From positions 992,001-1,056,000 of the forward strand of contig CANLSF010000002.1 in the NCBI GenBank assembly GCA_947493695.1: DNA of 64,000 bases, given 5' to 3'. The DNA is from an uncultured Kiloniellaceae bacterium. Lineage in GTDB: Bacteria > Pseudomonadota > Alphaproteobacteria > Kiloniellales > Kiloniellaceae. Every line of letters starts with the position of its first letter. Within the stretch, counting starts at the first letter, position 1. Positions 9,517 to 30,216 of the stretch are shown here, one piece after another. The translations under genes were made by a program, and so were the position numbers. A model generated the notes under the pieces. It was not told the origin of the DNA and ran no database searches. It saw nothing but the letters and a program-made list of their open reading frames with translations.

Positions 9517-10803
9517 TTACAGGCCCCAGTACTGAACATCAGACCGTAGTGTGCTGTCGTCGAGCACCGACTTGACGTCGATTAGAATTCCGCCCGGCTT
9601 GAGCCGGTCCGTCAGAGCATCCATCCCATTTTCCAGAAACTGCTCGTGCGAGACGGCCAGGATCAGGCCATCAAGATCGTTGAGCTGATCTTCCGGCGAG
9701 AGAATCAGGTCGAATTCCTCTTTCGCCAGCGCTGCAGTGACGTAAGGATCAAAAATCAGGGGCTCCAGGCTGAACTCCCGCAGTTCTGTCACGATATCAG
9801 GCACTTTGCTGTTTCGGATATCGGGCACATTCTCCTTGAAGGTCAACCCAAGGATACCGATGCGTGCGTTCGCCGACATCCGATCGCTCGCCAACAACAT
9901 CTTGATGAGTTTACGTGCCAAAAAGGCGCCCATCCCATCATTGATGCGGCGCCCGGCCAAAATGACTTCGGGATGATATCCGACAGCCTCGGCCCGTGCC
10001 GTGAGGTAATAGGGGTCGACACCGATACAGTGTCCGCCAACCAGTCCCGGCGTGAAATTGAGAAAATTCCACTTTGTAGCCGCAGCAGCCAGCACATCCC
10101 GGGTCGAAATCTCCAGACGCTCGAAGATAATGGAAAGCTCGTTCATCAGGGCAATGTTCAGATCGCGCTGGGTATTTTCGATGACCTTGGCCGACTCGGC
10201 GACCTTGATCGACGGTGCTCGGTGCACCCCGGCGGCAGCAAAACTGCCATAAGCGGCTGAAACGCGCTCCAGGGTATCGGCGTCTTCACCCGACACCACC
10301 TTCACGATGGCCTCAAGTCCGTGCTCCGTGTCGCCTGGATTGATCCGCTCCGGCGAATAACCGAGCTTGAAATCAATTCCCTGCCGCAAACCGGATGCTT
10401 CGGCGAGTATAGGACCGCAGATATCTTCGGTAACTCCGGGATAGACCGTCGATTCCAAAACTACGACGCCACCCTTCTTGAGATACGGTGCAATCATCCG
10501 ACAAGCGCCTTTAACGGCGCCAAGATCAGGGCGGCGGTCTCCATCAACCGGTGTTGGGACTGTGATGGCGAAGAAGGTCGCTCCCTCAAGGTCGGACGCC
10601 GTATCGGTGAACTGGATTGAAGCGGCCGCAAGGTTCTCTGGCGTTACTTCGCCTGTCCAATCCTCGTTCTCGCGCAGGGCAGCGATCCGGCGGCTATCAA
10701 TATCGATGCCGATGACCGTCTCGAAGTGTTTGGCGAACGCAACGGCCAGCGGCAGACCGACATAACCTAATCCAATAACGGCAATCTTTTCTGAAGTCAG
10801 CAT
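9517..10803 (-). CDS. tviB: UDP-sugar 6-dehydrogenase, TviB/WbpA-type (UDP-GlcNAc or UDP-GalNAc to uronate)
   Basis: 428-residue NAD-dependent nucleotide-sugar dehydrogenase. The N-terminal Rossmann motif is VIGLGYVGLPLA. The catalytic cysteine lies in GGHCIGVDPYYLT near residue 258, with the central dimerisation helix before it. PERINPGD and the later GLTFKENVPDIRNSKVPD segment are typical of the TviB/WbpA/Cap8 subgroup that oxidises UDP-N-acetylhexosamine, as opposed to UDP-glucose dehydrogenases. The product would be a uronic acid precursor for surface polysaccharide. The gene stands alone, but its region includes a polysaccharide-export fusion protein 5 kb away and a glycosyltransferase 34 kb away. 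The symbol reflects family similarity; GlcNAc versus GalNAc is not decided. Confidence 0.88.
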   Translation of the reverse strand: MLTSEKIAVIGLGYVGLPLAVAFAKHFETVIGIDIDSRRIAALRENEDWTGEVTPENLAAASIQFTDTASDLEGATFFAITVPTPVDGDRRPDLGAVKGACRMIAPYLKKGGVVVLESTVYPGVTEDICGPILAEASGLRQGIDFKLGYSPERINPGDTEHGLEAIVKVVSGEDADTLERVSAAYGSFAAAGVHRAPSIKVAESAKVIENTQRDLNIALMNELSIIFERLEISTRDVLAAAATKWNFLNFTPGLVGGHCIGVDPYYLTARAEAVGYHPEVILAGRRINDGMGAFLARKLIKMLLASDRMSANARIGILGLTFKENVPDIRNSKVPDIVTELREFSLEPLIFDPYVTAALAKEEFDLILSPEDQLNDLDGLILAVSHEQFLENGMDALTDRLKPGGILIDVKSVLDDSTLRSDVQYWGL

Positions 10804-11029: not shown

Positions 11030-11722
11030 TTAAGAGACCTGAGCAGCTTCGTTATCTCCTGAAAAACGCTCTATCTCCTCCAGCTTGGTCAGAACAGCGT
11101 TGGCCAAATTAACGATATCAAGCCTTGCGTCGCTCTTTGGCGCAAAATCGCCGATCCACTTACGCTCGCCAAAAGCGTCTACAAAGGCGGTCCTTTGCCG
11201 CACTTCCGGTCCAACAACATCACCAAGATGCCTTAATACGTCACCGATACGCCGCCCGGCACCGGTTCGGTGGTCGATTTTGGAAGGCACCAACAGAAAG
11301 CTCAGGTCATTGCCGTCGCGGATTGACCGCGAGGTCTCAATCAAATTCAGAACATTTGTCGTCGCAATCAGGTCAGGACCGGAGGCCGTCAAGGGAATGA
11401 CCGCCAGGCGCGAGAGCCCGAGAGCCGTCTCGGTCACAGCGCGGGAATGCGCGGGGCAGTCTATCAACACGAAATCACTCTCGATGGAGAGGACTTGCGT
11501 TACCCAGCGTTGGGCGCCGCGCTCGTCTTCGAGAGGCAGTGAATAGATCTTTGCGGGATAACGCCCCCTGGACATCCAGTGCGTTGAAGTTCCTTGTGGA
11601 TCTGCATCCACCAGGGCCACTTGCCGAGTGTCGCCGCCCAACTCACAAGCCAGATTGACGGCAATGTTGGACTTACCCACACCACCTTTGAGGTTTGCGA
11701 CAGTGATAATGCGCGCAGTCAT
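11030..11722 (-). CDS. orphan ParA-family ATPase
   Basis: 230-residue P-loop ATPase. The ATG at 11722 is chosen because the fold starts immediately (ITVANLKGGVGKSN, deviant Walker A with signature lysine at residues 11-18). An upstream in-frame start at 11842 would add 40 unconserved residues. Walker A' (VALVDADPQGTSTHW) and Walker B (FVLIDCPAH) follow. No parB, parS-like repeat or replication initiator is beside it, so it is not a standard partition locus. Orphan ParA proteins position other cargo such as chemoreceptor arrays, storage granules or surface structures. Here the gene is divergent from a large secreted RTX protein and shares its 400-bp upstream region. A link to polar placement of surface machinery is inference only. 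Confidence 0.85.
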   Translation of the reverse strand: MTARIITVANLKGGVGKSNIAVNLACELGGDTRQVALVDADPQGTSTHWMSRGRYPAKIYSLPLEDERGAQRWVTQVLSIESDFVLIDCPAHSRAVTETALGLSRLAVIPLTASGPDLIATTNVLNLIETSRSIRDGNDLSFLLVPSKIDHRTGAGRRIGDVLRHLGDVVGPEVRQRTAFVDAFGERKWIGDFAPKSDARLDIVNLANAVLTKLEEIERFSGDNEAAQVS

Positions 11723-12123
11723 GAGGCCGCCCCGCTCAACCGCCATCCGGGCATCGAGCTTACCGCAGGCCAGGCTCTGGCCGCTATCTTTCTCGGTCGG
11801 ATCATCATCTTCCTTGCATCCGAAGGCCCGTTTCACTTCCAAGGTGATGGCAAAGCACTCCAGACCTCATTGAAGCCTGGAGCCAAGATTTGCACGCTAT
11901 CCCATTATCAACAAATGCTTTTATATTCTCTTACCTGATCTGATGCTTACCCTCACGTTAACAAAAATCATACATAATTGTATCGTTTTGATTGGCAGGC
12001 GCGTTGACGGCGTTCGCGTACATCCCCACACTCTGCAAACTGTTAATCTGGTGTTAACCAAAGCGTTGTCAGGCCTGAATTTTGAAAGGGAACGGCAACG
12101 CGGTCCGGGAAGGGTCAATCGGC
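11723..12123. promoter_or_regulatory. divergent upstream region of parA-like gene and RTX gene, with a CtrA-type box
   Basis: A 401-bp region between divergently transcribed genes. The half nearer parA is GC-rich and shows nothing clear. The half from about 11900 is AT-rich and holds a TTAACAA half-site near 11957 and a full TTAA-N7-TTAA box at 12043-12057 (spacer TCTGGTG). The box matches the CtrA consensus of alphaproteobacteria and lies 67-81 bases before the RTX start codon, a normal place for promoter control. A second TTAACCA half-site overlaps its right arm. Confidence 0.45.
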
Positions 12124-15100
12124 ATGACTGAGCAGCAACCAAACCTGTCACCTGCAGAAACGTCCAAAGGAAATGGAACCGACAGCCATCCTACGGACAT
12201 CACTATCGAGACAGGGGCCTCATCTGCTGTTGCACTTGGTCAGGCAGCTGCGCCTGAACCTCTTGTTGTTGTACAGCCGGCGACCGGACAGACCCAGGAG
12301 ATAAGCCTCGAAGCCGGCCAACCGGTGCTGCTGACCATGGCTGCCGACGAGACCTTCATCGCAGTTGACGGCGCCAACTTCGTTCTGAGCTTCGACGGCG
12401 ACGGCGACGGCACCATCGATAGCCGCGTTGTCTTCCTGAATCTGGTCGATCAGGCCGGCTCGGAAAACCCACCGCAGTTCGTTATCGGCGGTCAGGTTGT
12501 CAGCAGTGGCTTGCTTGTCGCACAGACGATTGCTTTGGGCGGCGGCGATGGCGAACCGATTCCCTTCGAGACTGCAGCAGGCGAAGTTGCTGTTGGCGGC
12601 GGAAGCAACGTTTATGACGACAATCTCGGGGATGCCATTGACCTGCTTGCCGCCCAGGGCGTCATCCCACCGACCGCACTCTTGTTCGGCCTGCCCGACC
12701 CGGAACCCGGTGAAGCCCTGGACCTGACATCGGACGTACTTGATGACGTTCCTCCCCCCCCACCTGGCGGAGAACTCTTCTCTCCCGTCGATTTCGATGT
12801 CTCCGTAACAGCGCTACGCAATTTCGGTACGCCCGCGACGATTGCACCCGCTTTCAGTCAAGGCGTTCTGGTTATTGAAGGCGAAGAAGAGGCCCCCGGC
12901 TTCTTTTACGACTTCCAGATCGGATTTGCGGAAACACCGGACGACAACATTCGGGGTACGGACGAGGAAGACGGCACAACAGAGGCTTTCACGATCACCA
13001 GCCTGCCAGCCGATGGATATCTCATCATCGACCTTAACTCTGACGGCATAGATGACTACATCCTGCAGCCGGAAGATCTCGGCACCGACCGCGCAAATCT
13101 AACGACAGCCGACTCTGTTCGCTACTTCCTTCCCTTTGGCAGTGAGCGCCCGGAAATCCTCGAGGGCGATCTGAACGGCGATGGACCTGTCTTGCCCGAG
13201 CTTGTCAGTTTCAACTACTTCACCACGGACTCCGATGGCCTGACCAGCGATGGCGCAATCGTCACCATCGACTTCGCAGACGGCCCTCCGGGTGTCCTTA
13301 CGGTCCAGCCCGATGTCGAGGATGTCAGGCCAAATCGTGCGGGTGATGCAAACGCGCCGGAAACCTCGGTGACCATCGACGTTCTGGCAAATGACAGCCA
13401 TTCAGAAGGCTTGCCCTTGACGCTTACCGAGGTCGATGTCGACCCGGCCCTTGGCACTGCAGTGATCGTGGACAATCAGATTGTGTTCACACCGGTGGTC
13501 GGCGTTACTGAAACAACAGTTCAGTTCACCTATACCGCGACCACTCCCGATGGCTTGAGTGCACAGACCACCGTCGATGTGACCATCGGTCAGGATGTCA
13601 GCGTACAGCGCATCGTTGAGGTTCCGGACTCAAATCCAGAGCGGACCGAGCTTCTGAGCTCAATTGATACAGAGCTGGTCGATGTTGATGGCGCCGATGG
13701 CACCTCGAACGATCCGTTTGACGTCAATGTTGAACTCTACCCGAACAGCGACGTTACCTTCACGGTCACTGCAGACCCTGAGGCTCCGGACGTGCTCGAT
13801 CTCTATCTTCTCCAGGATCTTACTGGTTCCTTCCGGGACGATCTGCCCATAGTGCGAGGCGATCAGAACGCGAGCAACGACGCCGGCGACCTCGGAATCC
13901 TCGACGATCTTGTGAACGGTGTTGAAACAATCTCGTCCGACGTGCAATTCGGTCTGGGTAGCTTCCGTGATTTCGGAGAAGATGGCGGGTCAGCCCCCGG
14001 GGGGCAGTACGGCTTCGCCCACCACCTTGACCTTGAAGCTGGCCAGGGCGGACAGCGTCTTGATGGCGCACCGGCAGCAGTGCCTCCAGCCAACCCGAAC
14101 CTGCCGGCTGACGAGGGCGCTGCATACGACGAGCTCTTTGCGGGCGATCCCGATGCTGCAATCACCGGACTGGGTGGCGACCTGCCCGAGCGTCAGATGT
14201 TTGCTCTGAACCAGGTCGCAATCGATGCAGCCAAAGCCGAGGACGGCAATGGCGGAACATCATCAGATTTCGGTTTCCGTGACGGATCGTCCAAGGTTGT
14301 GGTCATCATCACAGATGCGACCTCAAAGGATTGGGACAATCCGGCCTTCAGGCAGGAACTGAAAGCCAATCTTCAGGCTTCCGGTGTCATCCCCATTTTC
14401 CTGGTCGCAGCCGGTGAAGAAGGCGAACAGTTCATTAATGACTTCTACGACGACGTCATTGCCGAACTCGGCGTAGGCGCCCGCGTTCCTCTCGAGCTCG
14501 ACAGCAGTAATCTTGTGAGTGCAATCGAAGAGGGCCTCCAGAGCATTACCGAAGATCTGACCCTGAACGTCGAAGGCGACGACAACGAGTATGTTTCGAT
14601 CGGTGATCCGGTTGTCGATCCGGACACAGGCGAGCACACCTGGGAAGTCACTCTCTCTGCGCCGCTGGACAAGGGCCATAACAACGATCCCGACATAAAG
14701 CTCACCGTCACCAACGATGCTACAGGTGATCAGGTCGGTGGCGAAATCAATGTCGATGTCACAACAGATGCAGCCGCCAACGGTGGCGATGATTTCGACA
14801 TCGTTGAAGGGCATAACGGACAAAACGCTCTTACCGGCGGTGACGGAGACGACCTGATCATCGGATTGGGCGGTGATGACATCTTGATTGGCGGTGCCGG
14901 TGCGGACGACTTTGCCTTTGGCGCCCGCAACGTTGATGGCGAGCTCGATTTTGATGGCAACGACATCATCCAGGATTTCACCGTCGGCGAGGATCAGGTC
15001 AACCTTGAGGCTATGCTGGATGCACTGGGTGCAGACGCATCGGATGTCACGGTTACCGTCAATGGTGGCAACACTGAAATTACCGTCGACGGTGCCACAG

Positions 15101-15177
15101 ACTTCATGGTGACCTTGACCGGTATCACTGACACGCTGACTGTCGGCAGTGATCCGACCGACGACATCGTGGTCTGA
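12124..15177 (+). CDS. large RTX-type secreted protein with Ig-like and integrin-like vWA domains (putative adhesin)
   Basis: 1017 residues from an ATG with GGAAGGG about 8 bases upstream; a TTG at 12082 would add 14. It has no Sec signal peptide. Residues 1-230 resemble the N-terminal region of BapA/LapA-like adhesins. Residues about 395-490 form a VCBS/tandem-95 Ig-like domain (TIDVLANDSHSEGLPLTL). Residues about 555-810 form a vWA domain that resembles the integrin beta type, with a MIDAS DLTGS motif in LYLLQDLTGSFRDDLPI, FGLGSFRDF, and VVVIITDATSKDW. Residues about 900-930 hold a short RTX calcium-binding array (GGDGDD, GLGGDD, GGAGADD), and the acidic, hydrophobic C-terminus suits type I secretion. 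No transporter genes are nearby. The product is probably exported and calcium-dependent; adhesion is inferred from the domains. Confidence 0.88.
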   Translation: MTEQQPNLSPAETSKGNGTDSHPTDITIETGASSAVALGQAAAPEPLVVVQPATGQTQEISLEAGQPVLLTMAADETFIAVDGANFVLSFDGDGDGTIDSRVVFLNLVDQAGSENPPQFVIGGQVVSSGLLVAQTIALGGGDGEPIPFETAAGEVAVGGGSNVYDDNLGDAIDLLAAQGVIPPTALLFGLPDPEPGEALDLTSDVLDDVPPPPPGGELFSPVDFDVSVTALRNFGTPATIAPAFSQGVLVIEGEEEAPGFFYDFQIGFAETPDDNIRGTDEEDGTTEAFTITSLPADGYLIIDLNSDGIDDYILQPEDLGTDRANLTTADSVRYFLPFGSERPEILEGDLNGDGPVLPELVSFNYFTTDSDGLTSDGAIVTIDFADGPPGVLTVQPDVEDVRPNRAGDANAPETSVTIDVLANDSHSEGLPLTLTEVDVDPALGTAVIVDNQIVFTPVVGVTETTVQFTYTATTPDGLSAQTTVDVTIGQDVSVQRIVEVPDSNPERTELLSSIDTELVDVDGADGTSNDPFDVNVELYPNSDVTFTVTADPEAPDVLDLYLLQDLTGSFRDDLPIVRGDQNASNDAGDLGILDDLVNGVETISSDVQFGLGSFRDFGEDGGSAPGGQYGFAHHLDLEAGQGGQRLDGAPAAVPPANPNLPADEGAAYDELFAGDPDAAITGLGGDLPERQMFALNQVAIDAAKAEDGNGGTSSDFGFRDGSSKVVVIITDATSKDWDNPAFRQELKANLQASGVIPIFLVAAGEEGEQFINDFYDDVIAELGVGARVPLELDSSNLVSAIEEGLQSITEDLTLNVEGDDNEYVSIGDPVVDPDTGEHTWEVTLSAPLDKGHNNDPDIKLTVTNDATGDQVGGEINVDVTTDAAANGGDDFDIVEGHNGQNALTGGDGDDLIIGLGGDDILIGGAGADDFAFGARNVDGELDFDGNDIIQDFTVGEDQVNLEAMLDALGADASDVTVTVNGGNTEITVDGATDFMVTLTGITDTLTVGSDPTDDIVV

Positions 15178-15444: not shown

Positions 15445-17517
15445 CTAGAAACTCGCGCGAAGGCCGACGGTAATAGTATTTTCCTTGAACTCGTCACTTG
15501 AGCTTTCGTCAGACTCACGAAGACGGAAGGTATAGTTGACGTTCGCAGATATGTTCGTGAAGACGTTGTAGTTCAAACCGGTCCGGAAGGTATACTCGTT
15601 CTCGATGCTCTCGCCGAGATCATTGTATTCGTATTCGGCGGAGGTCGTGAAGCGTGTGCGGTCGTTAAGAGCACGTCCCCAATCAGCCACGATGCCATAC
15701 TCGGACTCGTCGTCATCACTGTCGTTATCTTCGAACTCCGCCCGGAAATTGATACCGAAATTATCACGATTCCGGGAACCATTGAGTCCGAGACGGAAGG
15801 TCGAAACCCGCGACGTCTCGTCGTTCACATCGAAGGGGATGTCGTTGACGGAGGTGAAGACCTGCCCCGTCTCACTGTTCTCAAATTGTCCGGTTTCTGG
15901 ATTTAGTGCGACATTTTCGAAGTTTCGACCCAGCTGTTCCTGTGAGGTTCGAAGCACCTCGGCATAGCTGGCGCTGAGAGTCGTCCGGGGCGTAATGGCA
16001 TGCCTCAGATTTCCATCGAAACTGACCTCGTCGTCGCGCTGACCATAGCCGACTTCAACCTGGGTCCGCGAACTTGGTTGCCAGCGCGCAGCGGTCCGCC
16101 AGGTCGGATCATCAACCTCATTATCGTTATCGCCATCGTCAAACTGCTGATACCCAACGGACCCAATCAGAAAGAATGTCCGCGAGACGGCATAGGTCGT
16201 CGAGAAGTTCACGTCCCGGCGCGAAACATCGTCGTCGTCCGATGCGGTCGCTTCCGACGCCGACGCCGACAATCCCCAGGAGAACTGGGTAAAATCGGGA
16301 CCACTGTTCAGACTGACGCGTCCCTCGTGCGTCGAGGTATCGGATGCATCGTCCGAATCGATGAAGACCTGCGAGAAGGTGTAGCGGGTCTCCATGCGCG
16401 CAAAATCATCAAGCCGATTGGTCACGTAAGGGCTCAGGCGATAATTCTGAATGGTCTCGCGATTGGAGTCGTTATCACCAGATCCCGAAGAAGATCCCTC
16501 GTTGGTGAGGACTTCCTGGCTCACCGATGCATTGCCGTCGATGAAAAAGAGATCGTTGAAGACTTCGACCGTGCCGGAACTGTTCAGATCTACATCAGCG
16601 TCAAAGCCTTCGTCATCGCCAGCACTCTGATTGCTCAGTCCCACACTGCCTGCGAAAGCCCAGTTGATTCTTGCGGCGTTGGCAAAGAAGCTAATTCCAG
16701 GGCTGACGGTGCTGATAAACGCCGATTCTTCTTCCCCATCCGGGTCCTGGTCAACGTTATCGCTGAAGGTTTCCTGGAAGGAAATTGTCGGCGTTACACG
16801 CCAATCGCCGGAAAAGAACCCTTCAGGGATAATGATCACATCGCCTGGCGCCATCGCGATATTTGCGGTCGAGTCGCCATCATCGATCAGATCGTCGAGG
16901 CGCAGAGGAATCTGTCGGCGCTGGTCCCCTTCGCGTCGGAGCAGAACAGCCGAATTACCATCAGCATTACTGGAGAGACCACCGACGGCGATCATGACAT
17001 CCAGCGCAGACATGCGGTCGCGAAAGGCAATGGCTTGTGGCTGCTGCGCACTACCGACCACACGAATCTGCTGTTTCAGATCCCCAAAGAAACTCCGCAC
17101 GATCACGGTTACAACCGGATCCTGGACATACACACTGAGCTTCTCTTCCAACTCACGAGACAAGCTTGTGGGCGTATGACCCACAATCATCAGATCTTCG
17201 ATCAATGGCGTAGAGACACGGCCATCAGGCCGAACCGTATAAACACCGGAAAGATCGGGATTGCGCAGAACCAGAAGCTCAACCACGTCCCCCGGTCCAA
17301 TCAGGTAATCGGGAGATGCGACTTCGCCGTCAAACAGCGCGCCGTCAGGTTTCTGCGCCGCTTGTTGCGAGAGGTTTTTCTGAGCATCCACGCCGCGTTC
17401 TGTCGCGGACGCAAGACCACCGAAAGACAAGCTCAATGCCGTAGCACTGACCCCACCTAACAAAACCCCCCGAGCGACAGACCGCAAACAACGGTCAGAT
17501 GATATCGCTTTGCTCAT
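15445..17517 (-). CDS. polysaccharide export (Wza/SLBB) domain fused to an outer-membrane beta-barrel (TIGR03016/BBP2-like)
   Basis: 690 residues. The ATG at 17517 has GGAG six bases upstream and begins a signal peptide (cleavage near residue 40, LASATE); an earlier in-frame start lacks a site. Residues about 68-150 form a Poly_export domain (DYLIGPGDVVELLVLRNPDLSG, VRPDGRVSTPLI). An SLBB region follows to about 235 (IRVVGSAQQPQAIAF, ALDVMIAVGGL, APGDVIIIPEGFF). Residues 240-690 are an alternating, aspartate-rich beta-strand region opening with RVTPTISFQETFSDN and ending in a terminal phenylalanine (VGLRASF), as in barrels inserted by BAM. It resembles the barrel proteins of PEP-CTERM/EPS loci. 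In such loci these two functions are normally separate genes. The junction is in frame with no break. It would put the export channel and a barrel in one chain. Confidence 0.83.
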   Translation of the reverse strand: MSKAISSDRCLRSVARGVLLGGVSATALSLSFGGLASATERGVDAQKNLSQQAAQKPDGALFDGEVASPDYLIGPGDVVELLVLRNPDLSGVYTVRPDGRVSTPLIEDLMIVGHTPTSLSRELEEKLSVYVQDPVVTVIVRSFFGDLKQQIRVVGSAQQPQAIAFRDRMSALDVMIAVGGLSSNADGNSAVLLRREGDQRRQIPLRLDDLIDDGDSTANIAMAPGDVIIIPEGFFSGDWRVTPTISFQETFSDNVDQDPDGEEESAFISTVSPGISFFANAARINWAFAGSVGLSNQSAGDDEGFDADVDLNSSGTVEVFNDLFFIDGNASVSQEVLTNEGSSSGSGDNDSNRETIQNYRLSPYVTNRLDDFARMETRYTFSQVFIDSDDASDTSTHEGRVSLNSGPDFTQFSWGLSASASEATASDDDDVSRRDVNFSTTYAVSRTFFLIGSVGYQQFDDGDNDNEVDDPTWRTAARWQPSSRTQVEVGYGQRDDEVSFDGNLRHAITPRTTLSASYAEVLRTSQEQLGRNFENVALNPETGQFENSETGQVFTSVNDIPFDVNDETSRVSTFRLGLNGSRNRDNFGINFRAEFEDNDSDDDESEYGIVADWGRALNDRTRFTTSAEYEYNDLGESIENEYTFRTGLNYNVFTNISANVNYTFRLRESDESSSDEFKENTITVGLRASF

Positions 17518-17848: not shown

Positions 17849-18643
17849 TCAACGCCTTAATGAGGTGGACAAGAAGCGCCGACCGGCTCCTTCCAGCACA
17901 AGACACGTCAAGGCGCCCGACGCGAAAGCCCCTGTGTCTATCCCGATTCGATTGCTGCGAACGTCCGGGCGCGCAGTGGGCGTATGTCCATGCACGACCA
18001 TAACGCCATGATCTTCACGGGAATTCAGGAATTCGCTGCGAATCCAGAGAAGATCGTCCGGATCCTGCTGATCAATCGGGCACCCTGGGCGAATCCCGGC
18101 ATGGACGAAAAGATAGTCGCCGGCACGATATTGTAATTCGAGGCTTTCCAGGAAGGCTTTGTGCTCGGCGGGCACCGAAGCGCTCAGTTGCCTCGATAAC
18201 TCTTCATAATAAGCTCTATCGTCAAGATTTCTGGGCGCTGCCACCCCATAGCTGATGACCGTCGCTTCTCCACCAAAACCAAACCATTGCGGTCCAATGC
18301 CCGGATGCTCAAGAAATTTCAGCATGGCTTCTTCATGGTTGCCTTTGAGATATATCGACGCCATGCCCGCGAGGGGTTGTTCCAGCAAGAGCTCAATGAC
18401 GCCCCGGCTTTCCGTTCCCCGATCAATATAGTCGCCCAGATACACAACCGTCGAAGTTACACTTTGACTTCCGCCACGTTGATCGTCTGCGATCTGGTTG
18501 TGGAGTTCGTTCAGCAGGTCCGCCCGGCCGTGGATGTCGCCGATTGCGTAAACGCGGTGACCGTCAGGAATTCGAAAGCCGCCCTGGGAGGACGACTTGG
18601 AACCAGAGAAGAGTTGCTTGAGGGACGATAGAGAGCCGCGCAT
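17849..18643 (-). CDS. PPP-family metallophosphatase (serine/threonine protein phosphatase 1/PrpA-like)
   Basis: 264 residues with all PPP metal-binding motifs: GDIHGR (residues 35-40), GDYIDRG (about 70), GNHE (about 100), and later VHAG and HGHTPT. The two binuclear-metal shells are therefore complete. Family members are protein Ser/Thr phosphatases or diadenosine tetraphosphatases; this length and the YAIGDIHGRADLL start fit the bacterial PrpA/PP1-like group. The second of two close ATGs (18643) is preferred because AGGA lies 7 bases before it; the first (18649) would be only one base from AGGA. The upstream gap is the origin-like region. Substrate unknown. Confidence 0.87.
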   Translation of the reverse strand: MRGSLSSLKQLFSGSKSSSQGGFRIPDGHRVYAIGDIHGRADLLNELHNQIADDQRGGSQSVTSTVVYLGDYIDRGTESRGVIELLLEQPLAGMASIYLKGNHEEAMLKFLEHPGIGPQWFGFGGEATVISYGVAAPRNLDDRAYYEELSRQLSASVPAEHKAFLESLELQYRAGDYLFVHAGIRPGCPIDQQDPDDLLWIRSEFLNSREDHGVMVVHGHTPTARPDVRSNRIGIDTGAFASGALTCLVLEGAGRRFLSTSLRR

Positions 18644-19023
18644 AAGCATTTCCTAGCGCGCCTCTTCCGGCGCGACAAGCCTTTAAGCGGTGTCGGCAAC
18701 ATGCGGAAGAAGCAGCCAAAATTCCACCAAAGCCAAGATGCAGGGACTGTGACCGGACTGTAGAGGATAAAATGCGAGAGCAAACCAACTGTGGGATTTG
18801 AATAGACAACAGGGTTGTTATGGAGTGCGAACAGGCATTCTAAACAATTGAATCCTGTGTATTTTCCTTCTGCTTGAGATGATCGGTGTGCGTGCAATTC
18901 ACAGCTCGCTCGTCCCTGCTCGACGTCTGCGCTTCAAGGCGGTTCCCGAGGACCTCGTGAAGACTGCGCAGTGGTCGATTGAGATAGGGACTAAGAGATT
19001 GATTAAATTTATTCTTTAGCATC

Positions 19024-19429: not shown

Positions 19430-19894
19430 ATGACACGGATGTCTCTATTTAACAGCCCGTTAATGCTTGGTTTCGAACAGTTCGAACAGGCAATAGACCG
19501 GATTTCAAAGACCTCATCGGACGGATATCCGCCGTACAATGTCGAAAAACTCGGCGACAACCAGCTGCGCATTACCCTGGCAGTAGCAGGTTTCACGCCG
19601 GATGACATGCAGGTTCAGATCGAAAACAATCAACTCGTTATCCATGGCAAGCAGAACGATGAACAGGGTCGCGTGTACCTTCATCGCGGCATCGCGGCCC
19701 GTCAATTTCACCGCAGCTTTGTTCTCGCAGATGGAGTCGAGGTGAGTGGCGCATCTCTCGATAATGGCCTGTTACATATCGATTTGGAATGGCCACTTGT
19801 CGAGCCAGCAGTGAAAACGATCGCGATTCGCAACGGCGGAGACCAAAAAACGGTGAAGATGCCGACGCTGGAAAACCTCGATTCGGAGAGTTGA
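19430..19894 (+). CDS. Hsp20/alpha-crystallin small heat-shock protein (IbpA-like)
   Basis: 154-residue ATP-independent holdase that binds unfolding proteins and forms oligomers. The alpha-crystallin domain covers about residues 36-130, opening with YPPYNVEKLGDNQLRITLAVAGF and containing the AFRRSF-equivalent (RQFHRSFVLADGVEV) and the NGLLHIDLEWP strand. The C-terminal tail lacks a clean IxI motif apart from TIAIRN. The N-terminal SPLMLGFEQFEQAIDRI is like bacterial class A IbpA proteins of alphaproteobacteria. Its start codon is held in the ROSE hairpin. A DUF1150 gene follows 92 bp downstream, a frequent pairing in this class of bacteria. Confidence 0.95.
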   Translation: MTRMSLFNSPLMLGFEQFEQAIDRISKTSSDGYPPYNVEKLGDNQLRITLAVAGFTPDDMQVQIENNQLVIHGKQNDEQGRVYLHRGIAARQFHRSFVLADGVEVSGASLDNGLLHIDLEWPLVEPAVKTIAIRNGGDQKTVKMPTLENLDSES

Positions 19895-24670: not shown

Positions 24671-25132
24671 TCAGGCTGCGTTGGCAGTCGATTCAGTCAA
24701 GAGCGCGTAGATGCCGTCAGTGCTGTCCGTGCCTCGGAGCTTCTCACAAACGCTCCGGTTCCGGAGGAGTCTCGATACTCTTGCGAGTGCCTTGAGATGA
24801 TCAGCTCCGGCCGTCTCAGGTGCGAGAAGCATGCAGATGAGATCGACCGGTTGTTCGTCGATTGCGTCAAAATCAATCGGCGTTTCCAGGCGTGCAAACA
24901 TCCCATAAAGACGGTCAAGACCTGCCAACTTGCCATGCGGAATGGCAATGCCATTCCCGACGCCGGTTGTTCCCAGGCGCTCCCGCTCGATCAGAACTTC
25001 AAACAGAACCCGTTCAGGTTGCCCCGTCAGCTCAGATGCGCGCTTGGCAAGCTCTTGCAGCGCTTGTTTTTTGCTGGTCACCCGCAAGTTGGCAACAACA
25101 CTGCCATGGCTGATGAGATCGGCAATTTCCAT
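24671..25132 (-). CDS. ptsN: nitrogen-PTS EIIA protein (PtsN)
   Basis: 153-residue PTS EIIA-2 domain. The phosphorylated histidine is His66 in TTGVGNGIAIPHGKL. ERLGTTGVGNG before it and QPVDLICMLLAPETAGADHLKALARVSRLLR after it are family hallmarks. EIIA-Ntr receives phosphate from PtsP/PtsO and regulates potassium uptake, stress responses and other targets by its phosphorylation state; it does not transport sugar. It follows hpf by 23 bases and is presumably cotranscribed with it, in the order normal for alphaproteobacteria. Confidence 0.96.
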   Translation of the reverse strand: MEIADLISHGSVVANLRVTSKKQALQELAKRASELTGQPERVLFEVLIERERLGTTGVGNGIAIPHGKLAGLDRLYGMFARLETPIDFDAIDEQPVDLICMLLAPETAGADHLKALARVSRLLRNRSVCEKLRGTDSTDGIYALLTESTANAA

Positions 25133-25155
25133 GATGCTATCTTGGTTGTGAAAGA

Positions 25156-25743
25156 CTATTCGCCGCGATTACCGCGGGGATCTATCCAGCCGATGTTACC
25201 ATCAGGCCGCCGATAGATCATATTCAGACCACCGTGAGAACTGTTACGGAACATCATCGCCGGAAGATCCTCCAAATCCATACGCATGACTGCCTGACCG
25301 ACCGTCAGGTTCGAGATGTCGGTGGCCATCTCGGCTACGATCAGAGGCTTGGTGTCGCCATCGACGCCTTCGTCCTCAGTCGATTCTGCATCTCCAGATA
25401 GAATATACTGCTGCGCCAGCTGAGTCTCAACATCGCGGCCATTCGAATTCCCGTGGTCACGGAGCTTGCGCTTGTGCCTCCGCAGACGTTTGGACAGCCG
25501 CTCGGCCGCAACGTCAAAGGCAGGATAAGGCTCAGCGGCTGCGCCATTAGCCTGCAAGCGGATATTTCGGCCAACGTGGGCCGAAACCGTAGCCTGATAG
25601 AGATGGGCTTCACGCGTGAGTGTCACGTCGACTTCAATGGCATCGCCAAAATACTTGTCGAGAGTTCGTGACAGACTGTCCTCGATATGGGTGCGCATTG
25701 CGTCACCAACGTCGAGCTGCTTCCCTTTTACGGATAGCTGCAT
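25156..25743 (-). CDS. hpf: long-form ribosome hibernation promoting factor
   Basis: 195 residues from the ATG at 25743, where the conserved MQLSVKGKQLDVGDAMR begins; an upstream start at 25818 would add unconserved sequence. The N-terminal ribosome-binding S30AE domain (about 1-105) has the basic stretch LSKRLRRHKRKLRDH at its end. A linker leads to the C-terminal dimerisation domain (about 130-195; VAEMATDISNLTVGQAVMRMDLEDLPAMMFRNSSHGGLNMIYRRPDGNIGWIDP in pieces), so this is the long HPF that builds 100S dimers alone. It has its own 427-bp upstream region. Confidence 0.94.
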   Translation of the reverse strand: MQLSVKGKQLDVGDAMRTHIEDSLSRTLDKYFGDAIEVDVTLTREAHLYQATVSAHVGRNIRLQANGAAAEPYPAFDVAAERLSKRLRRHKRKLRDHGNSNGRDVETQLAQQYILSGDAESTEDEGVDGDTKPLIVAEMATDISNLTVGQAVMRMDLEDLPAMMFRNSSHGGLNMIYRRPDGNIGWIDPRGNRGE

Positions 25744-26170
25744 GTTTCTATATTTCTCTAGGATTTCTGCGGGTTTTCGAAGTTTTTCGGCTTCTGCTCT
25801 GCCCAGGACGGCGCACATTAGTGGCGGGCCTGCATGGAGTCAATAGTTGCGCTATCACTCTTGAGACTCCCGTTTCCGTCGAACCTCAGCTCTAGAGCCT
25901 GAACGCTTCATTCCAGATTAAAACGAAACGTAATCCAGCCTCTGTTTCAATGGGTTAGAGATCGATTCGCCTCAAGGATTTCTTGGACCAGGAGACGCCT
26001 CGCTCACCAAAACCATGGGGTAATCTTAAACCCTTCGAACATACTTTGCCAGCATCCTCGCATCACTTTAACGCAGATCCGGGTCAGGACCCTGCGAATC
26101 TGCAGAATTACAGAGCTCTCTGAAAGGATTTTTAATCGCTGCGTCAATTCTTAACGGCCCGCAAAGGCTG
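25744..26170. other. intergenic region upstream of hpf
   Basis: 427 bp between rpoN and hpf on the minus strand. It is AT-richer than its flanks. It probably carries a separate hpf promoter, since hpf is induced in stationary phase in related bacteria, but no clear -35/-10 pair or terminator for rpoN could be assigned. A CTAGAGCCTGA segment near 25892 resembles TTAGAGCCTGA at 24568; this may be a short dispersed repeat or chance. Confidence 0.4.
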
Positions 26171-27784
26171 CTAATGCTGCGCAGCCTTTTCCCGCCGGCG
26201 CTGGACGGATGAGGGAATACGCATCGACTCGCGGTATTTCGCCACAGTGCGGCGCGCAATATCGATGCCATCGGCACGCAGCATATCGACAATGGTGTCG
26301 TCGGAGAGAATCTTGGCTGAATTCTCTGCGTCAATCAGCACCTTAATCCGATAGCGCACCGCTTCCGCCGAATGAGATTCACCGTCGGAGCCTCCGATCG
26401 ATGCCGTAAAGAAGTACTTCAGCTCATAAGTACCGCGAGGTGTTACGATATATTTGTTGGATGTAACCCGGCTTACGGTTGATTCGTGCATCTCAATCAC
26501 CTCGGCAATATGCCTCAGTGTGAGCGGTTTCATGTGCTGCACACCCTTGCGGAAAAACGCGTCCTGCTGCCGCACGATTTCAGCAGCAACCTTCAAAATC
26601 GTCGTGGCCCGCTGGTGCAGGGATTTTACCAGCCAGTTCGCAGTCTGATACTGGTTGGAAAGGTATTCGCGTTCTTCCTTGGTTCTGACACGCTCAGAAA
26701 CATTGGTGAAATAGCGGGTGTTGACCAGGACCCGGGGCAGCGTATCGCTGTTCAGCTCAACCAGCCAGGTTCCGTCAGGCTGCGCGCGCATCAGAACATC
26801 CGGGATAATCGGCTCTGCGGTATTGTTATCGAACGTTCCCGCCGGCCTTGGATTGAGTGCCTTGATCTCGGCAATCATTTCCAGGAAGTCTTCTTCGTCC
26901 ACACCACAGATTTTGCGGAGCTCGCCAAACTGTCGCTTGGCCAAAAGGTCGAGGTTTCCCAGTAAAAGTTCGATCGCAGGGTCGAGCCGGTTCTGCTCGG
27001 CAAGCTGAAGCGCCAGACACTCTTGGAGCGAACGTGCGAAAACGCCTGCCGGCTCCATCTTCTGCATTATCGCGAGTGTCGCCTCGACCCTAGTGAGATC
27101 GCAAGACAGCGTCTCGGCCAAATCCGTGAGTTCGCCGACAAGATACCCGCTGACATCGAGCATATCGATCAAGTGAATACCGATCATGCGATCGATCGGA
27201 TCGGTAACATCCATCTGAAGCTGATCTAACAGGTGCTGACGAAGCGTTACTGCTTCCGTCAGTTGGCTCTCAATCGACTGGTCGCTATCCTCAAAGCGGG
27301 TGTTGCCACCGGCGCCCCAGTTTGAAAACGACGTATCTTCCTGGCCCTGGTGGTCTCCGGGACTGCTTTGGTAAACATCTTCAAAATCAGTATCGAGCGG
27401 CGCATCGTTGGCACCGGGCACATTTTCCGCATTGGCAAGCTCAAGCGAGTCGGGCGCTGTGTCCGACAAATCCGATGCCGTCAGCTCGGCCTGCTGTTCG
27501 GCGGCGTTCTCCTGACCACCGGCTGCTTCACCCGGTGCGGCGCCGTCATGACCGTTCATAAGCGCAGGTTCGTTTGCCGCGACACCATCAAGTGCTGCGT
27601 TCTCGCTGGCTCCGGCATCAGGACCGTCGTCTCTCTCAAGCAGAGGGTTCTGCTCAAGTTCCCTGTCGATGAAAGCCGCAAGCTCGACATTGGAGAGTTG
27701 CAGCAGTTTAATCGCCTGCTGCAGCTGCGGCGTCATGACAAGGGTCTGGCCCTGTCGGAGTTCTAACCTTTGGGTCACCGCCAT
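26171..27784 (-). CDS. rpoN: RNA polymerase sigma-54 factor
   Basis: 537 residues. The N-terminal activator-interacting region I is present (RQGQTLVMTPQLQQAIKLLQLSN, ELEQNPLLE). An acidic, alanine-rich region II spans about 55-170. The core-binding domain runs from about 180, and the C-terminal DNA-binding region includes the HTH (TLRHIAEVIEMHESTVSRVTSNKY in part) and the RpoN box ARRTVAKYRE near residue 518. AAGGG precedes the ATG. It is downstream of lptB and upstream of hpf, the standard arrangement. Sigma-54 transcribes nitrogen, motility and other genes with enhancer-binding activators. Confidence 0.97.
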   Translation of the reverse strand: MAVTQRLELRQGQTLVMTPQLQQAIKLLQLSNVELAAFIDRELEQNPLLERDDGPDAGASENAALDGVAANEPALMNGHDGAAPGEAAGGQENAAEQQAELTASDLSDTAPDSLELANAENVPGANDAPLDTDFEDVYQSSPGDHQGQEDTSFSNWGAGGNTRFEDSDQSIESQLTEAVTLRQHLLDQLQMDVTDPIDRMIGIHLIDMLDVSGYLVGELTDLAETLSCDLTRVEATLAIMQKMEPAGVFARSLQECLALQLAEQNRLDPAIELLLGNLDLLAKRQFGELRKICGVDEEDFLEMIAEIKALNPRPAGTFDNNTAEPIIPDVLMRAQPDGTWLVELNSDTLPRVLVNTRYFTNVSERVRTKEEREYLSNQYQTANWLVKSLHQRATTILKVAAEIVRQQDAFFRKGVQHMKPLTLRHIAEVIEMHESTVSRVTSNKYIVTPRGTYELKYFFTASIGGSDGESHSAEAVRYRIKVLIDAENSAKILSDDTIVDMLRADGIDIARRTVAKYRESMRIPSSVQRRREKAAQH

Positions 27785-27796
27785 ATGGTTAAACCC

Positions 27797-28591
27797 TTAA
27801 AGGCTAAACCTTTCTCCGAGGTAAACACGCCGCACATCTTCATGTGCAACAATCTCGGAGGGGTTGCCTTCCATGAGCACCATTCCATCGTGAATGATGT
27901 ACGCGCGATCCACGATTTCCAGCGTTTCCCTGACATTGTGATCCGTAATCAATACGCCAATACCTCTATCCTTGAGATGCGATACAAGATCACGGATATC
28001 ACCGACAGCAATCGGATCGATACCTGCCAAAGGCTCATCGAGCAGAATAAAGCTCGGTTGAGACGCCAGCGCACGCGCGATTTCGACTCGGCGCCGCTCT
28101 CCGCCGGACAACGCCATCGCCGGCGTCAGACGCAGATGCGTGATCGAAAATTCAGCCATGAGATCTTCGAGCATCGCCTCACGCCGCTCCCGATCCGACT
28201 CCGTGACTTCGAGAACGCCGCGAATGTTCTGTTCGACATTCAAACCGCGAAAGATCGACGCTTCCTGCGGCAGATAACCGACGCCCATGCGTGAGCGCCG
28301 GTACATAGGCATATCGGTGATGTCGTTCCCATCAAGGGTGACCCAGCCGTAATCCGGCGAGAGCAGCCCCGTAATAATATAGAAACTGGTCGTCTTGCCT
28401 GCACCGTTCGGCCCCAGTAGGCCGACAGCTTCGCCGCGTTGCAGCTCCATCGAGATGCCGCGTAGGACCGGTCTTTTTTTGAAGCTTTTCCCGATGTTGA
28501 CACACATCAACCCGGAGTTATCAGCGACAAGTCTTGGTTTTCCGCGTTCGTCGTCCGCTTCGTCGGTCCGACCGCTCTCTATTTCCCGCAT
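27797..28591 (-). CDS. lptB: LPS export ABC transporter ATP-binding protein LptB
   Basis: 264 residues. Walker A is GPNGAGKT (about residues 60-67), the signature is [10 protein letters not shown], and Walker B is ILLDEP with the following GID loop and switch histidine (ITDHNVRET). [19 protein letters not shown] is strongly LptB-specific. The protein dimerises with LptF/LptG (not in the window) at the inner membrane and powers lipopolysaccharide extraction. The first 25 residues are a polar extension before the ABC fold. It overlaps no neighbour and is 12 bases upstream of rpoN. Confidence 0.96.
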
Positions 28592-28702
28592 TGCAACTTT
28601 CTCAATTCAACCACCGGCATTCGCGGCGGCTTCAGTTTAGTATAGGTAACACGAACGCTCAGGATCTGCCTTTACTTTTCTCTTCGTTGACTGCTTGGGC
28701 TA

Positions 28703-29545
28703 TTACTGCCCGCAGGTATCGGTCGAACCGATAATCAATGCGTCCACCCTGCCATCTTGACCCGCAAGCATTCGACTGACACCCGTCGCGAGATTAACTT
28801 CAGCTTCACTGCCATTCATCTGGTTGCCGCAGCGCGTGATTTTAACATTCCCGGTCAAGCGTGCGACTTCGCGCTTAACAAAGTATTGCCCTCGGTCAGC
28901 GCGCGCAAATTCTTGCAGGGTCGCGACCTCAACGTTATCAAACGCATCAACGCGCGACAGCTCCAACTTTTCGTCGGCGTCCTGCTCGAAATGGGCTGTA
29001 AGGACGTCGCCCCGTATCCGTTTGTCTTCACGTACTGCCACGGCATCACCCCGCGCCACCGCAAGCTGTTTACCTTCCCAGTACTCCAGGCTGTCCCTGG
29101 CGGTCAGGACATCGGGTCCACTGGTGAGCTTAAGGTTATCACCCGTCAGAACCAGGATACCGTTTTCAACGTCATAGACACCGTCTTCGCCGTAAACCAC
29201 TTCACTGGGGGTCACGATGCGTACATTTCCGTGGACATCAATGCGGTAGATATCGGTACTGGATTTCTCGCTTGCCTTGTAACTGGCGATCATGACATCT
29301 GCAAAAACCTCAAGTTCGCCGCGGGCTGCCCTTGCATTACCACGTGCCACATAGGTCTGCTCGTCGCGCCGCCACTCGATGCCCTGCTCCGCATTGATCT
29401 CAAGGGGTGAGTCACCTTTGTCCAGACCGGACAACCCTTGAGCCTGCAACGACGGTGTTCCGGCCAGAACAGCTATAAAAAAACCTAAAACCAGAATTGT
29501 CGGGTCTCGAAACACCGCCCCTCGCTTAAATCTGCTCGTATTCAT
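28703..29545 (-). CDS. lptA: LPS periplasmic bridge protein LptA
   Basis: 280 residues with a signal peptide (about 1-35, ending near LQAQG) and an OstA/LptA beta-jellyroll domain (about 40-215) that repeats the YVARGNARAARGE and VYDVENGILVLTGD motifs. The remaining part repeats the fold (LTGNVKITRCGNQMNGSEAEVNLATG). It forms the periplasmic bridge from LptC to LptD. It starts within the lptC stop codon (ATGA overlap) with GGAGG just upstream, so the two are translationally coupled. It is longer than E. coli LptA (185 residues), as usual in alphaproteobacteria. Confidence 0.93.
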   Translation of the reverse strand: MNTSRFKRGAVFRDPTILVLGFFIAVLAGTPSLQAQGLSGLDKGDSPLEINAEQGIEWRRDEQTYVARGNARAARGELEVFADVMIASYKASEKSSTDIYRIDVHGNVRIVTPSEVVYGEDGVYDVENGILVLTGDNLKLTSGPDVLTARDSLEYWEGKQLAVARGDAVAVREDKRIRGDVLTAHFEQDADEKLELSRVDAFDNVEVATLQEFARADRGQYFVKREVARLTGNVKITRCGNQMNGSEAEVNLATGVSRMLAGQDGRVDALIIGSTDTCGQ

Positions 29546-30216
29546 CGGAGAGCCTCCTGCGCATCCGGATAGACAATCAGGCGGCTTTTGCCTGTGAATA
29601 CGATTCTCGCACCTTCTTGCGTAATACGGAAGCCCTCTGCAGTGAGACGCCCGGCAGGCCCGTGCCCCTCAACAGCGCTCTCTCCCCAGGCATCCTTTGT
29701 TTTCAGATCGATTGAGGCCGCTTCAGTACGGATTTCAAAGCCCTGATCGTGGAACATATCCACATCGCCAGCCAGGTCCAGTTGTTGCTCCTCGTAAAAG
29801 AACTGACCTGCCCGGGCCGTAAGTGCCAGCCAGGTTTCGTCTTCCAGCGTGATATCGGCCTTTGGAAGCTCGAGTTCGTAGAGATTGCGGTCTTCCTTGG
29901 ATTGGGAAACCAGGTCCGCCGTCACCGTGAAGGGCCGGTTTTCATTATCGACACCGTTCCAGCGTGGATTGAGAACACTGACTTCCCCACCCTGCAGATC
30001 AACTTCCGGCAGAACAACCTCGGTCGGATCGCCAATTTGTATGAATTGCTGCCAGGCGATCACCAGAATGATCAAACCCGCGGCCGTCGCAGGTAACAGA
30101 ACCTTCAGGACACCGACAAAGCGGCTATAGCTGCTGCGTTGGGAGTAGCGCGGTGGCGGCTGACGCTCGCTGGGCGCATCGGCTTCAACCCCGTCACTTG
30201 CAAATGCCTGCGCCAT
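29542..30216 (-). CDS. lptC: LPS export protein LptC
   Basis: 224 residues. A single inner-membrane anchor (about residues 33-55, FVGVLKVLLPATAAGLIILVIAW) is preceded by a polar cytoplasmic tail. A periplasmic jellyroll (about 70-215) follows, containing NRPFTVTADLVSQSKEDRNLYELELPKADI and DMFHDQGFEIRTEAASIDL. It binds LptB2FG and passes LPS to LptA. A strong GAGGAGG lies 12 bases before the ATG. It is located 17 bases after kdsD, so the LPS-core sugar enzyme and the transport genes form one unit. Confidence 0.93.
   Translation of the reverse strand: MAQAFASDGVEADAPSERQPPPRYSQRSSYSRFVGVLKVLLPATAAGLIILVIAWQQFIQIGDPTEVVLPEVDLQGGEVSVLNPRWNGVDNENRPFTVTADLVSQSKEDRNLYELELPKADITLEDETWLALTARAGQFFYEEQQLDLAGDVDMFHDQGFEIRTEAASIDLKTKDAWGESAVEGHGPAGRLTAEGFRITQEGARIVFTGKSRLIVYPDAQEALR

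What the first reader, a model, noticed from the sequence alone, without database searches (positions are those of the whole stretch)
15445..17517. Polysaccharide-export protein fused to an outer-membrane beta-barrel
A Wza-like Poly_export plus SLBB half is joined in frame to about 450 residues of beta-barrel ending in a terminal phenylalanine. In exosortase/EPS loci these are normally separate genes. Wza itself crosses the outer membrane with a short helix, so a full barrel on the same chain implies a different export-channel design.
Basis: partly seen in the sequence, partly recalled or inferred. Interest (0 to 1): 0.66.

Follow-up and report, generated by a model that had tools for sequence, protein, structure and literature searches.

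The report
Sugar-export ring subunit fused to pore
A group of marine bacteria has welded one subunit of a polysaccharide-export ring directly onto the outer-membrane pore that normally is a separate protein, while keeping a second, free copy of the ring subunit, which suggests a mixed ring carrying a single tethered pore.

Summary
Confirmed, with one correction: the gene is on the minus strand. The 690-aa protein joins a full-length XrtA exopolysaccharide-export domain (TIGR03027, aa 70-235) to a full-length XrtA outer-membrane barrel (TIGR03016, aa 237-690), each over its curated cut-off. AlphaFold2 gives a D1D2 OPX and an unplugged 22-strand barrel; strand 1 starts two residues after the OPX ends. 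It is no artefact: nine complete and one contig-cut fusion occur in four families of one order, and junction dN is 0 in 6 of 6 genus pairs. Outside the order, 85 of 85 sampled genomes with TIGR03027 at E<=1e-40 carry one such copy, unfused. The unexpected part: 10 of 11 fusion genomes keep a free OPX, and none has a separate XrtA barrel over cut-off. The window's genome has two OPX genes, one co-polymerase and one such barrel. I propose that the fusion takes one seat in a ring of free OPX, giving one tethered barrel per ring; the stoichiometry is inferred, not shown.

The parts
15445..17517 (-). Whole gene, 690 aa: OPX domain fused to an outer-membrane beta-barrel
17404..17517 (-). Signal-peptide-like N-terminus (aa 1-38, ...LASA|TE), no lipobox; read by eye, no predictor run
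16813..17310 (-). XrtA exopolysaccharide-export (OPX) domain, TIGR03027, aa 70-235
   Evidence: 203.7 bits, model 2-169/169; best fold matches are a Class-3 OPX (9n9a) and Wza
17098..17319 (-). Poly_export subdomain (D1), aa 67-140
   Evidence: 74 bits, cut-off 28
16828..17073 (-). SLBB-like subdomain (D2), aa 149-230
   Evidence: SLBB_2 26.1 bits, just under its cut-off of 27
16798..16830 (-). Junction, aa 230-240; no linker: OPX ends at aa 235, barrel strand 1 starts at aa 237
   Evidence: dN 0 in 6 of 6 pairs for codons 226-246
15448..16809 (-). XrtA-associated outer-membrane barrel, TIGR03016, aa 237-690, 22 predicted strands, C-terminal Phe
15817..15945 (-). Long loop between strands 15 and 16 (aa 525-567), helix plus lower-confidence stretch; extracellular by strand count, possible gate
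   Evidence: side and role inferred

Best explanation
It is the outer-membrane half of the single Wzx/Wzy-type (XrtA/PEP-CTERM) exopolysaccharide exporter of this bacterium, with one OPX protomer built in. SHOWN by sequence: a complete D1D2 OPX and a complete barrel in one chain; no separate XrtA barrel; a free lipoprotein-type OPX and one co-polymerase (PCP) elsewhere in the genome. INFERRED: the free lipoprotein OPX forms most of a periplasmic ring above the PCP; one fused chain takes one seat in that ring (for example 7 free + 1 fused if the ring is an octamer like Wza), so exactly one barrel sits over the ring axis and the polymer runs PCP -> OPX ring -> barrel. The absence of a linker holds the barrel next to the D2 face of the ring, and the barrel replaces the lipid anchor that the fused chain lacks. 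Rough confidence: about 0.85 that it is the XrtA exporter's barrel component; about 0.45 for the one-seat mixed ring.
For: Both halves match full XrtA-family models. The window's genome (99.86% complete) has exactly two Poly_export genes, free and fused; one Wzz-type PCP by Pfam and one TIGR03007 PCP, the same gene; one TIGR03016 barrel, the fused one; and 37 PEP-CTERM hits at E<=0.01. So no second PCP was found for the fusion to serve. The XrtA locus on C1 has OPX-PCP-kinase-ATPase-deacetylase-FemAB-GT-XrtA-amidotransferase-PGT but no barrel; in unfused G036 the barrel sits between kinase and ATPase. Free OPX over cut-off is kept in 10 of 11 fusion genomes and a separate TIGR03016 over cut-off in 0 of 11, against 5 of 6 unfused order genomes (Fisher p 0.001, species not independent). 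All 16 free OPX read have a lipobox Cys; none of the 9 complete fused chains has one, though some have a Cys elsewhere in the N-terminus (by eye). 30 positions are invariant across 10 fused and 10 free OPX, while fused OPX are less alike than free OPX in 45 of 45 genome pairs. In G032, G033 and G056 the fusion gene lies beside XrtA-locus genes. The published multimer model of M. xanthus EpsX/EpsY puts the barrel on the D2 face of an OPX octamer (PMC9601211, section 9 read), which fits a D2-to-strand-1 join.
Against: No multimer was modelled and nothing was measured; the ring size is taken from Wza and EpsY work. The pTM of the fused model is 0.69, so the relative placing of OPX and barrel is not firmly predicted. 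The fused OPX could have a role of its own rather than a ring seat; it has lost some residues invariant in free OPX. The clean 'two OPX, one PCP' count holds for the window's genome; several other fusion genomes (G016, G021, G032, G033, G059) carry further, more distant OPX. G033 has a fusion but no free XrtA OPX was found (88% complete; the other OPX there is of a different type), and G021's fusion is cut at a contig end before the barrel. In the window's genus the fusion gene is far from the EPS locus. The OPX tree does not nest the fused OPX inside the order's free OPX, so when the copy arose is unresolved. The barrel is predicted 22-stranded, not 18 as in M. xanthus.
Confidence: 0.6

Rival explanations
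1. Two-layer arrangement: free lipoprotein OPX forms a ring docked on the PCP, while the fused OPX acts separately at the outer membrane as the barrel's own receiver or docking domain. This resembles Models 2 and 3 of PMC9603273, which place OPX both at the PCP and at the porin.
For: Also explains two OPX paralogues, one barrel and one PCP. Fused OPX have lost residues that are invariant in the 10 free OPX compared, e.g. F82 and W84, which would fit a changed interface.
Against: 30 positions remain invariant in both types. The free OPX has its own lipobox, so it too should sit at a membrane, most likely the outer one.
Confidence: 0.25
2. Fused homo-oligomer: eight fused chains make the ring and bring eight barrels.
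For: A 1:1 fusion would give this by default, and the fused OPX keeps 30 positions invariant with free OPX.
Against: Free OPX would be redundant, yet is kept in 10 of 11 fusion genomes. By the standard barrel formula (shear assumed) a 22-strand barrel has about 20 A backbone radius, so eight side by side need centres at 65 A or more from the axis, outside a Wza-type ring of about 105 A diameter (diameter recalled, not looked up), and the join has no linker.
Confidence: 0.1
3. Processed precursor: the chain is cut after export into a separate OPX and barrel, giving the ordinary two-protein translocon.
For: The two halves are complete and line up with stand-alone proteins.
Against: No linker or variable region at the junction; codons 226-246 show dN 0 in 6 of 6 genus pairs, and P231, F234, G237 and W239 around the join are invariant in 9 of 9 complete fusions. 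A cut would waste the tether.
Confidence: 0.08
4. Second export pathway: the fusion serves another polymer, for example one built with the neighbouring UDP-sugar dehydrogenase (9517-10803).
For: In the window's genus the fusion is on another contig from the XrtA locus, and the dehydrogenase neighbour is conserved in the 4 genomes examined.
Against: Only one PCP found in the genome and no third Poly_export gene. In G032, G033 and G056 the fusion gene lies beside XrtA-locus genes.
Confidence: 0.08
5. Sequencing, assembly or frame artefact.
For: None found.
Against: Nine complete in-frame fusions in separate genomes; four of these appear under public names, L146-L149, by matching contig lengths.
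Confidence: 0.01

Closest known systems
[quoted passage not shown] Class 3 OPX + Wzp porin)
   Same: Short OPX without the Wza outer-membrane helix, working (as proposed) with an integral outer-membrane barrel of the same pathway; best fold match of the OPX half is the Class-3 OPX WzaB, 9n9a.
   Different: Both parts in one chain; an extra free OPX is kept; fused OPX shows no lipobox; barrel predicted with 22 strands rather than 18.
Canonical XrtA/PEP-CTERM EPS locus with separate TIGR03027 and TIGR03016 genes
   Same: Same two families, both over cut-off; the other locus members scanned are present.
   Different: Barrel gene missing from its place between kinase and ATPase; barrel found instead fused to a second OPX elsewhere.
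E. coli Wza (Class 1 OPX)
   Same: Poly_export and SLBB fold (VIA Z 15.6, rmsd 3.4 over 158 residues to 2j58).
   Different: No C-terminal Wza_C helix found; a 454-residue barrel instead.
GfcD / YjbH (two barrel modules on one chain, with an SLBB-like part in GfcD; from PMC9603273)
   Same: A barrel and an SLBB-like part on one polypeptide in a polysaccharide system.
   Different: Two barrels, and no Poly_export domain mentioned in the passages read; not compared by sequence here.

Membership tests
TIGR03027 (XrtA exopolysaccharide export protein) | Whole-protein score over curated cut-off | tested here: met
   203.7 bits against 180, model 2-169/169
TIGR03016 (PEP-CTERM-associated outer-membrane protein) | Whole-protein score over curated cut-off | tested here: met
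   171.5 bits against 90.85, model 2-477/477
Composite OPX/beta-barrel translocon (Class 3 OPX + Wzp) | OPX made of Poly_export + SLBB, no Wza_C helix, no GfcC | tested here: met
   Pfam scan lists Poly_export and SLBB (SLBB_2 slightly under cut-off), no Wza_C or GfcC at E<=0.1; D1D2 fold
Composite OPX/beta-barrel translocon (Class 3 OPX + Wzp) | Partner outer-membrane barrel in the same polysaccharide pathway | tested here: met
   Barrel on the same chain; one PCP found in the genome. That it works in this pathway is inferred
Composite OPX/beta-barrel translocon (Class 3 OPX + Wzp) | OPX and barrel are separate polypeptides (usual state, not required by the mechanism) | tested here: not met
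   One open frame; hence filed as a variant
Composite OPX/beta-barrel translocon (Class 3 OPX + Wzp) | 18-stranded barrel as in M. xanthus (the genome survey in PMC9601211 accepted computationally verified outer-membrane barrels near OPX genes) | tested here: not met
   22 predicted strands in the fused model and in the stand-alone barrel of G042
Composite OPX/beta-barrel translocon (Class 3 OPX + Wzp) | OPX and barrel interact and are needed for EPS export | not testable with these tools
   Needs knockouts and pulldowns
Class 1 OPX (Wza) | C-terminal outer-membrane alpha-helix (Wza_C) | tested here: not met
   No Wza_C at E<=0.1; barrel follows D2
XrtA/PEP-CTERM EPS system | Exosortase A, PCP, kinase, ATPase and other locus members in the genome, plus PEP-CTERM substrates | tested here: met
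   10 locus proteins scanned, including exosortase A 304 bits; the PCP was scanned only as its first 199 aa and scores 488.5 bits genome-wide; 37 PEP-CTERM hits

The most novel reading that the evidence does not exclude
A hetero-oligomeric export ring with a built-in counting device: identical free OPX subunits plus exactly one OPX that carries the pore, so that each ring has one, and only one, covalently tethered outer-membrane channel. This would be a natural solution to the mismatch between a ring of many OPX and a single barrel, which the two-protein composite translocons leave open.
Probability: 0.42. Interest if true: 0.82.

Novelty: new variant of a known kind. Interest (0 to 1): 0.63.

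Why it matters
The composite OPX/barrel translocon is reported as widespread but rests on genetics, pulldowns and models; whether OPX and barrel really form one channel, and in what ratio, is open (Models 1-4 in PMC9603273). A natural, selected, linker-free fusion is independent evidence that the two work side by side, suggests which OPX face meets the barrel (D2 to strand 1), and extends the principle to XrtA/PEP-CTERM exopolysaccharide systems. The kept free OPX makes the stoichiometry question directly testable: fused and free chains differ about threefold in size, so their ratio in a native complex can be read by native mass measurement or by quantifying each subunit.

Tried and rejected
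Artefact: rejected by nine complete orthologous fusions. Sigma-54-type site as a sign of shared regulation: pattern scans were not clearly above chance (window 85 against mean 69.9, 5 of 100 shuffles as high; L004 27 against 21.5, 23 of 200), so dropped. Sigma-70 scan near the gene: 4 promoter-like sites against a shuffled mean of 1.4, one of them upstream of the gene (17704-17676, minus strand, 9 of 12), not pursued. Other fusions outside the order: long frames around class barrels (G404, G291, G190, G373, G426, G349, G304) looked suspicious, but in the loci read the frame only runs on over the neighbouring kinase or co-polymerase gene in another frame, or upstream; I saw no OPX in them (by eye). 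G110's 501-aa OPX frame: its barrel match lies elsewhere in the locus. A fusion whose OPX scores worse than E 1e-40 outside the order would have been missed. G033's second OPX hit is of another type and was not counted as the free XrtA OPX. Barrel tree: fused barrels are not one clade in the best tree, but one clade is not rejected (p-AU 0.467); 38 of 64 extracted rows used. OPX tree: 52 of 117 extracted rows used; both trees by the quick method, SH-aLRT only; the root is a midpoint, so the age of the duplication is unresolved. The rate comparison used 10 of 11 fusion genomes (G033 has no free copy to compare) and the dN/dS comparison the 4 genomes of the genus. Fold search with the barrel gave large barrels of other functions (TonB-dependent receptors, Occ porins and others) at about 10% identity among the rows shown; no specific relative. 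Papers: seven full-text searches for a described OPX-barrel fusion showed none in the titles and abstract starts listed (up to 20 rows each); the held library lacks most subscription papers and all bioRxiv preprints.

Full report
OBSERVATION. The interval 15445-17517 holds one open frame on the minus strand, ATG 17517 to stop 15445, 690 aa; translated on the plus strand in frame 1 the interval has stops. Against NCBIfam it carries TIGR03027 (XrtA/PEP-CTERM exopolysaccharide export) at aa 70-235 and TIGR03016 (PEP-CTERM-associated outer-membrane protein) at aa 237-690, both practically full-length and over cut-off. Pfam sees Poly_export clearly and SLBB_2 just under cut-off, and lists no Wza_C at E up to 0.1. 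The protein ends in Phe690.

STRUCTURE. AlphaFold2 on an alignment of 54 session sequences (10 fused proteins, free OPX, stand-alone barrels) gave mean pLDDT 83.8, pTM 0.69. Residues 1-64 are below 50; ten-residue blocks of the OPX part lie at 73-94, the junction block (231-240) at 83, and the barrel mostly at 87-98, with dips to 63-84 (aa 331-360) and 59-79 (aa 521-570). I count 22 long strands from aa 237 to 689. The first begins two residues after the OPX domain ends; there is no linker and no plug domain. A control, the stand-alone TIGR03016 barrel of G042 (27-sequence alignment, pLDDT 89.4, pTM 0.83), also has 22 strands, so fusion has not changed the strand number. The M. xanthus partner barrels are described as 18-stranded (PMC9601211, PMC9603273). 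Foldseek's best match to the model is on the OPX half: 9n9a, Class-3 OPX WzaB of M. xanthus (E 3.6e-13; VIA Z 16.4, rmsd 5.9 over 159 residues), then Wza; the barrel half matches large barrels of other functions at about 10% identity.

CONSERVATION. In the window's order all 61 held genomes were searched. TIGR03027 is over cut-off in 17. Eleven of these hold a fused form: nine complete (G000-G003, G016, G032, G033, G056, G059), one cut inside the barrel by a contig end (G060), and one cut before the barrel (G021), which is counted only because its OPX groups with the fused ones. The fused OPX of G059 and G060 score 173 and 166 bits, below the curated cut-off of 180; those genomes pass on their free OPX. 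The eleven span four family codes (f1, f3, f7, f8). Outside the order, 40 of 385 class genomes (besides two of the window's genus) and 49 of 398 phylum genomes (besides the window's own) have TIGR03027 at E<=1e-40; four are in both samples, so 85 distinct genomes, each with one copy at that threshold and none fused (the one odd frame, G110, was checked). Of the 40 class genomes, 34 have a separate TIGR03016 at E<=1e-15, 32 of them over cut-off. Within the window's genus the junction codons 226-246 have dN 0 in 6 of 6 pairs, with dS saturated in 5 and 0.23 in one.

WHAT IS LEFT OVER IN THE GENOME. An XrtA EPS locus lies on contig C1: OPX (211 aa, lipobox LVGC), PCP, tyrosine kinase, ATPase, deacetylase, FemAB, glycosyltransferase, exosortase A, amidotransferase, sugar-phosphate transferase. 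The kinase and ATPase genes are 74 bp apart and no barrel is there. In unfused G036 the barrel stands between kinase and ATPase; in G042 it directly precedes the ATPase, and in G037 it lies 1.8 kb before it; a frame in the same place was read by eye in several class loci. In G001-G003, G056, G059 and G060 kinase and ATPase are neighbours with no barrel between; G016, G021 and G032 are rearranged or not fully fetched. Genome-wide in G000: two Poly_export genes, the free and the fused; one PCP by both Wzz and TIGR03007 at E<=1e-30; one TIGR03016; 37 PEP-CTERM hits at E<=0.01.

THE PATTERN. Ten of eleven fusion genomes keep a free TIGR03027 OPX over cut-off; the exception, G033, is 88% complete, and in its close relative G032 the free gene lies 38 kb from the fusion, further than G033's contig reaches. 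None of the eleven has a separate TIGR03016 over cut-off; five of the six unfused order genomes do, and the sixth, G043, has no TIGR03016 match (Fisher p 0.001, species not independent). Below-cut-off TIGR03016 matches exist in G016, G021, G032, G033 and G060; in G016, G021 and G032 they sit near other OPX genes below cut-off, and the one of G060 is at a contig end and may be the rest of its cut fusion. G016, G021, G032, G033 and G059 also carry further, more distant OPX. Exactly one TIGR03007 PCP over cut-off is present in 10 of 11 fusion genomes; G033 has none over cut-off. The reading is that the fusion replaced the barrel gene, not the OPX gene: an extra OPX copy was put in front of the barrel.

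DIVERGENCE. All 16 free OPX read have a lipobox cysteine; the nine complete fused chains show signal-peptide-like N-termini without one, some with a cysteine elsewhere (by eye; G059 lacks an ATG upstream of its signal-like stretch). Thirty OPX positions are invariant across 10 fused and 10 free copies, 36 are invariant only among the free ones and 9 only among the fused, and fused copies are less alike than free copies in 45 of 45 genome pairs (mean identity 0.565 against 0.708). Fused OPX form one side of a branch (SH-aLRT 98). Fused barrels group with three of the order's five separate barrels (99), but are not one clade in the best tree.

MECHANISM. The simplest reading is that the fusion supplies the outer-membrane channel of the only OPX-type exporter found in this genome and takes one place in a ring otherwise made of free OPX. 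That explains, together, why the free OPX is kept (10 of 11), why there is one barrel and one PCP, why the fused chain can do without a lipid anchor, and why a linker is not needed: D2 of one ring subunit is welded to the edge of the barrel. A ring made only of fused chains would carry eight 22-strand barrels needing centres at least 65 A from the axis (formula, shear number assumed); against a Wza-like ring of about 105 A diameter (recalled) and with no linker this looks unlikely. A two-layer arrangement, with the fused OPX at the outer membrane and the free ring at the PCP, is the main rival. None of these was modelled as a complex or measured.

LITERATURE. Schwabe et al. 2022 (PMC9601211: abstract, sections 9 and 11, term search) and Saidi et al. 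2022 (PMC9603273: abstract, section 6, Discussion, term search) describe the two-protein composite translocon; my term searches in their main texts found no OPX-barrel fusion. PMC11340318 (passages) reports separate barrel (prmC) and OPX (prmD) genes in a Sphingomonas, both EPS-minus when deleted. Haft et al. 2006 (PMC1569441, passages) describes the PEP-CTERM/EpsH system. PMC12881504 (passages) gives the octameric Wza-Wzc channel. Seven full-text searches listed no report of this fusion (listings seen, not the papers beyond those named here), within a library that lacks most subscription journals.

VERDICT. Observation confirmed; interpretation partly supported; a new variant of a known kind, with an unusually testable stoichiometry.

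Noticed in passing
window 12082-15177 (+): 1031-aa protein with a bacterial Ig (Big_9) match and weaker cadherin-, vWA- and RTX-repeat matches, convergent with the fusion gene; looks like a large secreted surface protein. Its place beside the fusion is kept in all four genomes of the genus held.
   Followed up: partly
window 9517-10803 (-) and 11030-11842 (-): UDP-sugar dehydrogenase (TviB-like) and ParA-like ATPase; with the RTX protein, phosphoesterase (17849-18649) and Hsp20-like protein (19430-19894, named by eye) they form a conserved block around the fusion gene in the genus.
   Followed up: partly
L091 8486-10750 (G025): A lipoprotein OPX frame and a separate barrel frame lie head to tail in the same reading frame, parted only by the OPX stop codon: a possible pre-fusion layout, though this genome has no second TIGR03027 over cut-off.
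   Followed up: partly
G043 (L089): Has the XrtA OPX, PCP and kinase but no TIGR03016 match at E<=0.001 (98% complete); its barrel may be of another family.
   Followed up: no
class genomes G072, G204, G302, G382 (family code f20): XrtA OPX present, but no TIGR03016 at E<=1e-15 in any of the four f20 genomes tested; their barrel partner is unidentified. G290 and G428 (other families) likewise.
   Followed up: no
window 61979-62053 (-): A PEP-CTERM sorting signal (32.8 bits, frame of 283 aa), one of 37 hits in the genome.
   Followed up: no
window 24671-30216 (-): Block that reads by eye as the usual lptC-lptA-lptB-rpoN-hpf-ptsN neighbourhood (names recalled, not scanned).
   Followed up: no
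G015-G021 (e.g. L012, L013, L014): A second, divergent short OPX with a separate barrel frame of about 420-560 aa nearby: an ordinary two-gene composite system by the look of it; G016 and G021 have it as well as the fusion.
   Followed up: no
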